Part shown: in pieces, positions 1 to 22,196 of the stretch
Position numbering within the stretch: the first letter of the stretch is position 1
How the letters are laid out: each line of letters opens with the position of its first letter
NCBI GenBank assembly: GCA_020719845.1
Contig: DYPP01000010.1
Coordinates: 1-49,658, forward strand
Reading direction: 5' to 3'
Origin: Treponema denticola
GTDB taxonomy: Bacteria > Spirochaetota > Spirochaetia > Treponematales > Breznakiellaceae
DNA length: 49,658 nucleotides
Position numbers and translations under genes: made by a program
The notes under the pieces: model-generated
What the model saw: the letters and a program-made list of their open reading frames with translations, nothing else
Told to the model about the DNA's origin: nothing
Database searches by the model: none

Positions 1-81
1 GCAAACCGTTTAAATCCGCCAAAATCCGAGAAAATACTGAGGCTGTCTGATAACTAACCGAGTTATCAGACAGCCTCAATT
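1..81 (-). repeat. Partial copy of the 176-bp palindromic element, cut by the window start
   Basis: Read on the minus strand, this stretch matches the left half of the elements at 15736-15911 and 22021-22196 almost base for base, so it is a third copy in opposite orientation. It holds the terminal hairpin at 38-78: an 18-bp perfect stem with a 5-base loop (AACCG). It also holds one arm of the central inverted repeat (CCGCCAAAATCC at 17-28). The rest lies outside the window. The outer AATT edge is at 78-81, 35 bases before the chosen clpB start. Confidence 0.9.
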
Positions 82-15735: not shown

Positions 15736-15911
15736 AATTGAGGCTGTCTGATAACTCGGTTAGTTATCAGTCAGCCTCAGTATTTTCTCGGATTTTGGCG
15801 GATTTAAACGGTTTGTGTTGCTAAAACCAGGTAAAACCGCCAAAATCCTGCAAAAATACAACATTGAGGTAGCTGCCCCGTAACTCCCTGAGTTACGGGG
15901 CAGCCTCAATT
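15736..15911 (+). repeat. 176-bp palindromic element, complete copy
   Basis: The element runs from AATTGAGGCTG to CAGCCTCAATT. Its left hairpin (15739-15779) has an 18-bp stem with one mismatch. The right hairpin (15872-15904) has a 15-bp perfect stem and a CCT loop. The middle has a further inverted repeat, GGATTTTGGCGG (15790-15801) with CCGCCAAAATCC (15837-15848). By eye it differs from the 22021 copy at six of 176 positions. It lies between a TPR gene and rubrerythrin. The bases from 15912 to 16034 hold no gene and no clear promoter that I could assign. Confidence 0.93.
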
Positions 15912-21159: not shown

Positions 21160-22026
21160 GTGAAAGTCCTACGGGCCAAGTCATACGGTTTCTGCATGGG
21201 CGTCCGGCGGGCGGTGGATATGGCCTACGCCGAAGCCGGTTCGGCGACGACGGCCAAGGTGGCCACCATGGGACCGTTGATCCATAATCCCCAGGCTCTG
21301 GCGGCGCTGCGGGAACAGGGCGTGGATGAGTTGGCCGACGTCGGACCGGCCGCCGACCTGGCGGATACGACGGTGGTCATCCGCGCCCACGGCGTCGCGC
21401 CGGCGGTGCAGCGGCGCCTTGAAGATTCGGGCGCCCGGATCGTGGACGCCACCTGCCCCCGGGTGCGCCTGAGCCAGAAAAAAGCCCGGCTGCTGAGCGG
21501 GGCAGGGTACCGCCTATTTCTGGCCGGGGAAAGCCATCACGGGGAAATCGTCGGCATCCAGGGCTACGCGCCGGACTGTCTGGTGGTGGCCGGCGCGGAG
21601 GAAGCCCGGGAACAAGCCCTGGCGCTGCGGCGGCAGGACGAAGGGTTGAAAACCGCGCTCATCGGTCAGACGACTCTCTCGCAGGAGGAATTCGCGGCCA
21701 TCGCCGCCGCCCTCCGCTCCGTGTTCCCCGACCTGGAAGTCTACGACACCATCTGCCGGGCCACCAAGGACCGGCAGAACGCCCTGCGGGCGCTCTGCGC
21801 CAAGGTAGACGCCCTGGTCATCGTGGGGGGCAAGAATTCCGCCAATACCCGCCGCTTGCACGAGCTTGCCCTGCAGAGCGGCAAGCCCGCCTGGCACGTG
21901 GAAACCGAAGCCGAGCTGCCCGCCGGAATCGGCGCCTACGCGGTGGTCGGACTCAGCGCCGGCGCTTCCACCCCGGACGCGGTCATCGACCGGGTAGAAG
22001 CGCGGCTGCTGTCCCTCCCGAATTGA
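21160..22026 (+). CDS. ispH: 4-hydroxy-3-methylbut-2-enyl diphosphate reductase IspH
   Basis: IspH is the last enzyme of the MEP isoprenoid pathway, making IPP and DMAPP with a [4Fe-4S] cluster. The 288-aa product has the three cluster cysteines C12 (FCMGVRRAV), C99 (DATCPRV) and C199 (DTICRAT), plus the IRAHGV and GKNSANTRRL motifs. The start is GTG at 21160, with AAGGA eight bases upstream. The last codon and the TGA stop (22021-22026) lie inside the left end of a palindromic repeat, so the repeat defines the C-terminus. Confidence 0.96.
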   Translation: MKVLRAKSYGFCMGVRRAVDMAYAEAGSATTAKVATMGPLIHNPQALAALREQGVDELADVGPAADLADTTVVIRAHGVAPAVQRRLEDSGARIVDATCPRVRLSQKKARLLSGAGYRLFLAGESHHGEIVGIQGYAPDCLVVAGAEEAREQALALRRQDEGLKTALIGQTTLSQEEFAAIAAALRSVFPDLEVYDTICRATKDRQNALRALCAKVDALVIVGGKNSANTRRLHELALQSGKPAWHVETEAELPAGIGAYAVVGLSAGASTPDAVIDRVEARLLSLPN

Positions 22027-22196
22027 GGCTGTCTGATAACTCGGTCAGTTATCAGACAGCCTCAGTATTTTCTCGGATTTTGGCGGATTTAAACGGTTTG
22101 TGTTGCTAAAACCAGGTAAAACCGCCAAAATCCTGCAAAAATACAAGATTAAGGTAGCTGTCCCGTAACTCCCTGAGTTACGGGACAGCCTCAATT
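22021..22196 (+). repeat. 176-bp palindromic element, second complete copy
   Basis: The ends are AATTGAGGCTG and CAGCCTCAATT. The left hairpin (22024-22064) is a perfect 18-bp stem with loop CGGTC. The right hairpin (22157-22189) is a 15-bp stem with loop CCT. Compared with the 15736 copy, the right stem carries T at 22161 with A at 22185 where the other has C with G, a pair-preserving change. It overlaps the last six bases of ispH and lies 82 bases before valS. Confidence 0.94.

What the first reader, a model, noticed from the sequence alone, without database searches (positions are those of the whole stretch)
15736..15911. A 176-bp fully palindromic intergenic element in three copies
Two complete copies (15736-15911, 22021-22196) and one partial inverted copy (1-81) share terminal inverted repeats, a hairpin at each end, and a central inverted pair around the loop GTGTTGCT. 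The element as a whole can fold into one long hairpin or cruciform. It carries no coding capacity. Three copies in 50 kb suggest many in the genome. It could be a MITE (the edges AATT|GAGGCTG...CAGCCTC|AATT fit a 4-base target duplication) or a REP/BIME-like element moved by an IS200-like transposase.
Basis: seen in the sequence. Interest (0 to 1): 0.75.

Follow-up and report, generated by a model that had tools for sequence, protein, structure and literature searches.

The report
Hairpin-ended MITE family in spirochaetes
The repeat is a small non-coding jumping element (a MITE) that duplicates 4 bases where it lands; about 27 copies sit in this spirochaete genome and relatives occur in other spirochaetes, and its unusual point is that each end is itself a hairpin and that single end-hairpins also occur alone.

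Summary
The repeat is real, and its main reading as a MITE with a 4-base target duplication holds. It is not one full palindrome. It is a 168-bp core made of three hairpins in a row: A, centre, C. The host genome has 15 intact copies (92-100% identical to the query) and at least 12 more cut at contig ends. The window's "partial copy" at 1-81 is one of these. Diverged relatives occur in other spirochaetes, including Treponema caldaria (84% identical).

Over 44 elements from several genomes, the four flanking bases form exact direct repeats in 31 cases (13.9 expected, P<1e-4). They are often not AATT, and similarity drops sharply beyond four bases. Removing one copy plus one AATT rejoins an HD-domain gene. 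This indicates movement by a DDE-type transposase. REP/IS200-type movement is not supported: a REP-type transposase gene exists but has no such hairpins beside it.

Single 36-54-bp end-hairpins also occur alone. In the host genome, two of these match exactly what deletion between short direct repeats inside the full element would leave. Hairpin arms differ between lineages but keep pairing.

The helper transposase was not found. The ends resemble IS1182-type insertion sequences, but that link is inferred. This is a new variant of a known kind.

The parts
15736..15739 (.). left 4-bp target duplication (AATT) of copy 1
15740..15778 (+). copy 1, left terminal hairpin A (39 bp; outer 17 bp is the terminal inverted repeat GAGGCTGTCTGATAACT)
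15780..15859 (+). copy 1, central hairpin (loop around GTGTTGCT)
15869..15907 (+). copy 1, right terminal hairpin C; inner foot GTAG, outer end ...GGGGCAGCCTC; both arms carry a paired change relative to the family consensus
15908..15911 (.). right 4-bp target duplication (AATT) of copy 1
22021..22196 (+). copy 2: AATT + 168-bp core (A 22025-22063, centre 22065-22144, C 22154-22192) + AATT, between a LytB/IspH-like gene and a valyl-tRNA synthetase-like gene
1..81 (-). copy 3, cut by the start of the contig: outer part of the centre, hairpin A (39-77) and target duplication AATT (78-81), just upstream of a clpB-like gene

Best explanation
A non-autonomous DNA transposon (MITE) with hairpin ends. 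SHOWN: it has a 168-bp non-coding core with about 17-bp terminal inverted repeats (GAGGCTGTC-YSR-TAACT). It is dispersed in at least 27 copies in this genome. Elements of the family are flanked by a 4-bp A/T-rich direct repeat that covaries between the two sides, and at least one copy splits a gene that closes up when the element and one repeat are removed. INFERRED: a DDE transposase supplied in trans binds the two terminal repeats, moves the element and makes a 4-bp staggered cut. The transposase is probably of the DUF772/IS1182 type, whose members in related spirochaetes have similar ends and sometimes hairpin ends (about even odds for this sub-claim). INFERRED: solitary 39-bp hairpins in this genome are mostly remnants left when replication slips between short direct repeats inside the element (GACAGCCTCA gives solo A, GCTGTC gives solo C). 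In one relative, a 54-bp single-hairpin form appears to have moved as a unit. INFERRED: hairpin arms stay complementary through template-switch correction of quasi-palindromes, or because a hairpin end is useful to the element.
For: Copies and identity: 15 full copies, 92-100% identical to the query, mean pairwise identity 95.8%; three cores at unrelated sites (L006, L008, L010) carry the same differences from consensus, so are identical. Target duplication: 31 of 44 elements have exact 4-mers on both sides against 13.9 in shuffles, P<1e-4; matches at the four positions are 39, 38, 44, 38 of 44 and fall to 10 of 44 just outside on one side and 19 of 44 on the other. Non-AATT pairs: AATC/AATC, GATT/GATT, ATTT/ATTT, AAAT/AAAT, TACT/TACT, AACT/AACT, TATT/TATT. 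Empty-site readings: L008 gives an ORF whose PolyA_pol_RNAbd match (weak, below the Pfam cut-off) crosses the junction and runs into an HD domain; L077 (solo hairpin) gives an ABC-exporter-like ...AHRLATVRRAGRI|VVL... (no Pfam hit for the L077 piece). Same architecture elsewhere: T. caldaria L087 (84%), G170 L088 (78%), and 119-bp elements with different sequence in G323. Solo forms: in silico deletion between direct repeats of copy 2 gives sequences identical to L074 and L068. Ends: true IS1182 transposases in relatives have GAGACTGTGTCAAAACTC ends (L117) or hairpin ends GGGGCTGTC... (L114/L232).
Against: No DDE_Tnp_1, DDE_Tnp_1_6 or DUF772 transposase in the 3.3-Mb assembly. No autonomous element with exactly these ends was found in 394 genomes of the order searched by end sequence. 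AATT dominates in this genome, so much of the duplication evidence comes from relatives; solo hairpins in this genome alone show no excess of exact repeats (4 of 9, shuffled mean 4.1). No orthologous empty site in a close relative could be compared, since no other genome of the genus appeared among the relatives searched.
Confidence: 0.82

Rival explanations
1. REP/BIME/REPIN-type element mobilised by a REP-associated tyrosine transposase (RAYT, Y1/HUH), recognising single-stranded hairpins.
For: The genome encodes a RAYT (L082 2196-2702, NCBIfam NF047646 over cut-off). Hairpin C has GTAG at its inner foot, the REP tag described in PMC3733652. Hairpin folds are conserved by covariation.
Against: Covarying 4-bp direct repeats flank the elements, which Y1 enzymes do not make (established knowledge of IS200/IS605). 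No copies of hairpins A or C in the 5 kb around the RAYT gene, and no inverted repeats close to it. The GTAG tag is on one hairpin only, faces inward, and is GAAG in T. caldaria, G170 and G323.
Confidence: 0.07
2. The ends are mobilised or targeted by stem-loop-replacing transposition, as proposed for IS1272 (IS1182 family): solitary hairpins are targets that full elements replace.
For: IS1272 targets and replaces inverted repeats (PMC5678879). IS1182-like L232 in a relative sits between flanks AAAAGAGAA and TTCTCTTTT, which are inverted repeats of each other. Solitary hairpins with the same ends exist.
Against: New IS1272 insertions have no target duplications (PMC5678879), while these elements do. 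The HD-gene insertion closes up around one AATT with no palindrome lost. Solo forms are exactly explained by deletion.
Confidence: 0.08
3. A conserved structured RNA or bidirectional terminator kept for a cellular function, spread secondarily.
For: Strong folding, conserved hairpin-A loop RACCG with covarying arms across 16 sequences. One terminator-like match at 22022-22066.
Against: No Rfam match at gathering thresholds. Copy 1 has no terminator-like match. One copy splits a gene, and target duplications mark insertion.
Confidence: 0.03

Closest known systems
Prokaryotic MITEs (review PMC10969869: under 500 bp, terminal repeats of about 4-30 bp, direct repeats, stem-loop transcripts)
   Same: Size, terminal inverted repeats, 4-bp target duplication, no coding capacity, A/T-rich targets, stable folding.
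   Different: Each end is itself a near-perfect 39-bp palindrome; solitary end-hairpins occur; three-hairpin layout conserved across genera with covarying arms; helper transposase unknown.
IS1182-family insertion sequences (including IS1272, PMC5678879)
   Same: Similar terminal repeats in relatives (GAGACTGTGTCAAAACTC in L117, apparent 4-bp repeat GCGG; GGGGCTGTC... with hairpin ends in L114/L232).
   Different: No transposase in the element or found in the host assembly; IS1272 replaces stem-loops without target duplication, whereas these elements duplicate 4 bp.
REP/BIME/REPIN elements with RAYTs (PMC3733652)
   Same: Short palindromes, one GTAG-footed hairpin, a RAYT gene somewhere in the genome.
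   Different: Target duplications present; RAYT gene not flanked by these hairpins; tag not conserved; tens, not hundreds, of copies.

Membership tests
MITE | short, non-coding, dispersed multicopy element under 500 bp | tested here: met
   168-bp core, 15 full and at least 12 contig-end copies
MITE | terminal inverted repeats | tested here: met
   40-48 nt inverted arms at 71-78% including the outer GAGGCTGTC; near-constant outer ends in all full copies
MITE | target site duplication of fixed length | tested here: met
   4 bp; 31 of 44 exact against 13.9 shuffled, P<1e-4
MITE | insertion into otherwise intact sequence (empty site) | tested here: met
   L008 joins an HD-domain ORF (weak PolyA_pol_RNAbd match across the junction); L077 joins an ABC-exporter-like motif, with no Pfam hit. 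Reading-frame inference, not a comparison with a sister strain
MITE | an autonomous relative with the same ends | tested here: inconclusive
   none found with these ends; assembly is fragmented and short contigs may be missing
IS1182-derived element | ends like those of IS1182 members | tested here: inconclusive
   L117 end GAGACTGTGTCAAAACTC against MITE ends GAGGCTGTCYCAAAACT in relatives; similar, not identical
IS1182-derived element | an IS1182-type transposase in the host | tested here: not met
   no PF05598, PF13751 or PF01609 match in the assembly; absence from a fragmented assembly is weak evidence
IS1272 stem-loop-replacing insertion | no target duplication; target hairpin lost | tested here: not met
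   duplications present
REP/BIME (RAYT-mobilised) | hairpin with GTAG tag at one foot | tested here: inconclusive
   present at the inner foot of hairpin C in this genome, absent from A, GAAG in most relatives
REP/BIME (RAYT-mobilised) | hairpins flank the RAYT gene | tested here: not met
   none in 5 kb around L082 2196-2702; inverted-repeat search near it empty. PMC3733652 notes that some RAYT-like genes lack flanking REPs
REP/BIME (RAYT-mobilised) | no target duplication | tested here: not met
   duplications present

The most novel reading that the evidence does not exclude
A family of DDE-mobilised elements whose unit of recognition is a folded hairpin end: complete 36-54-bp palindromes transpose as units with a 4-bp target duplication, and selection for the hairpin keeps the arms complementary while their sequence drifts between spirochaete lineages.
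Probability: 0.15. Interest if true: 0.7.

Novelty: new variant of a known kind. Interest (0 to 1): 0.4.

Why it matters
It gives spirochaetes of this order a MITE family with a clear target duplication and layout, and explains many of the breaks in this assembly. If the hairpin ends are recognised as structures by a DDE enzyme, it would join IS1272's proposed stem-loop targeting as evidence that some DDE transposases read DNA shape, and 36-54 bp would be very small for such an element. The solitary hairpins look like a bacterial counterpart of solo LTRs: remnants that mark past insertions.

Tried and rejected
Searched the host genome for PF13751, PF01609, PF05598: no match. Checked both Y1 transposase loci for the hairpins: none. 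Looked for the element in viral contigs and plasmids: none. A pattern scan of the GTDB genome collection gave only two contigs, Spirochaeta sp. UBA9216 and Treponema sp. Emb289P1bin65. Examined ends of DUF772 and DDE_Tnp_1 insertion sequences in relatives for a matching autonomous element: similar but not matching ends; ISAs1-like copies in G258 have unrelated ends (CACGGAAATCAATTTTTG). The ISAs1-like gene beside a GAGGCTGTCCTGTAACTTC end in G130 (L177) points the wrong way to belong to that end. L165 looked like an autonomous 1.17-kb element but carries an XRE-type regulator and a lipoprotein-like gene, no transposase. A structured-RNA reading was considered: no Rfam match.

Full report
OBSERVATION. 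The two full copies are where stated and are 97% identical. The window is a complete contig of a 3.3-Mb, 252-contig genome, and copy '1-81' is cut only because the contig starts there. The element is not one palindrome: its overall self-complementarity is about 68-69%. It folds into three consecutive hairpins, A, centre and C, with z = -13.4 on one strand and -14.3 on the other. Self-complementary arms are listed.

COPY NUMBER. A whole-genome search gives 15 full copies (174-176 bp matched, 92-100% identical to the query). Twelve contigs start or end inside hairpin A or the centre, and at least seven contig ends fall on the C side, so at least 12 more copies are collapsed at assembly breaks. 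Solitary A hairpins (L073-L078) and C hairpins (L068, L070, L071) also occur. Cores differ by 0-14 bases (mean identity 95.8%); L006, L008 and L010 are identical cores at different sites. Some amplification was therefore recent.

DISTRIBUTION. Full elements of the same layout occur in the 3,239,340-bp genome G027, whose length equals that of Treponema caldaria H1 (PMC3739177), at 84%, and in G170 at 78%. An end-sequence search of 394 genomes of the order hits 22 genomes; only G000 and G323 have many. G323 carries 119-bp elements with the same three-hairpin order but other sequences, and 54-bp single-hairpin elements. Named records with a solitary hairpin are Spirochaeta sp. UBA9216 and Treponema sp. 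Emb289P1bin65. The host genome is thus taken to be a spirochaete; its name was not given.

TARGET DUPLICATION. In this genome nearly all flanks are AATT, which alone cannot tell duplication from element sequence. The exceptions decide: AATC/AATC (L009) and GATT/GATT (L012) here, and ATTT/ATTT, AAAT/AAAT, TACT/TACT, AACT/AACT, TATT/TATT in relatives. Over 44 elements, 31 are exact against 13.9 in shuffles (P<1e-4), and high identity is confined to four positions. Two readings give the empty site directly. In L008 the joined ORF has a PolyA_pol_RNAbd match across the junction (E 2.8e-4, just below the Pfam cut-off) followed by an HD domain. In L077 a solitary hairpin interrupts an ABC-exporter-like motif, AHRLATVRRAGRI|VVL; this piece had no Pfam hit.

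SOLITARY HAIRPINS. Copy 2 contains the direct repeats GACAGCCTCA and GCTGTC, each pair 129 bp apart. Deleting between them in silico gives sequences identical to L074 (solo A) and L068 (solo C), AATT flanks included. That explains solo forms here without separate transposition. In G323, however, near-identical 54-bp units sit at different sites with AATT/AATT and ATTT/ATTT, which suggests they moved as units.

HAIRPIN CONSERVATION. Sixteen A-type hairpins from about a dozen genomes align without gaps. Eleven of 17 pairs show changes on both sides, the covariation score is 0.473 against 0.199 for shuffles and at most 0.148 for slid pairings, and the loop RACCG is kept in most. The set was gathered mostly with a seed in the loop and a minimum of 12 pairs, so the percentage paired is inflated; the two-sided changes are less affected. 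Within this genome, copies L001 and L014 each carry a compensating double change in hairpin C (2 observed, 0.23 expected, P = 0.017). Either template-switch correction of quasi-palindromes (own knowledge) or selection would do this; I cannot separate them.

WHICH TRANSPOSASE. None of PF01609, PF13751, PF05598 is found in the host assembly. True IS1182 members (NCBIfam NF033551 over cut-off) in relatives have related ends: L117 GAGACTGTGTCAAAACTC with an apparent 4-bp repeat GCGG, and L114/L232 with hairpin ends GGGGCTGTC.... A group of 376-402-aa DUF772 transposases, nearest to IS1182 but below cut-off where scanned, has ends such as GAGCCTCTTTCAAAACT; apparent repeats TTAA, TCTA and TCAA were seen for members of that group. 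I rate an IS1182-like helper at about even odds.

REP RIVAL. One of the two Y1 genes is a genuine RAYT. It has no inverted repeats close to it, and the target duplications speak against Y1 movement. GTAG at the foot of hairpin C is suggestive but is GAAG in most relatives.

CONTEXT. Copy 1 lies between a TPR-protein gene and a rubrerythrin gene, copy 2 between lytB/ispH and valS, the cut copy upstream of clpB. There is no consistent terminator signal.

Noticed in passing
L165 2284-3455 (G323:C16): Ends of the same MITE kind, 1.17 kb apart, flanked by ATTT/ATTT, enclose a small XRE-type regulator and a lipoprotein-like gene: possibly a cargo-carrying version.
   Followed up: partly
L169 1524-1577, L170 1971-2024, L174 start: 54-bp single-hairpin elements, near identical, with AATT or ATTT duplications: very small mobile units.
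   Followed up: partly
L018 and L030 (G000:C248 and C147): A second palindromic repeat (AGAGTCAACTCCAAAAACTTCAGTTTTTAGAGTTGTTCCGCTTAAAACGC) lies beside element copies; similar three-hairpin arrays with AGACTTGT ends occur in L128 and L192.
   Followed up: partly
L082 2196-2702 (G000:C241): A REP-associated tyrosine transposase gene without flanking palindromes.
   Followed up: partly
L232 (G167:C187), ends near 1120 and 2871 after reversal: An IS1182 member with hairpins at both ends whose flanks AAAAGAGAA / TTCTCTTTT are inverted repeats, as if it sits inside a palindrome.
   Followed up: partly
window 22021-22028: The stop codon of the lytB/ispH-like gene (AAT TGA) straddles the target duplication and the first bases of copy 2; the joined empty site would also give a stop there.
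   Followed up: no
G000 contig ends (e.g. C36, C47, C120, C145, C154, C163, C168, C211, C217, C218, C230, C236): At least 19 contig ends fall inside this element, so it is a notable cause of the assembly's fragmentation.
   Followed up: yes
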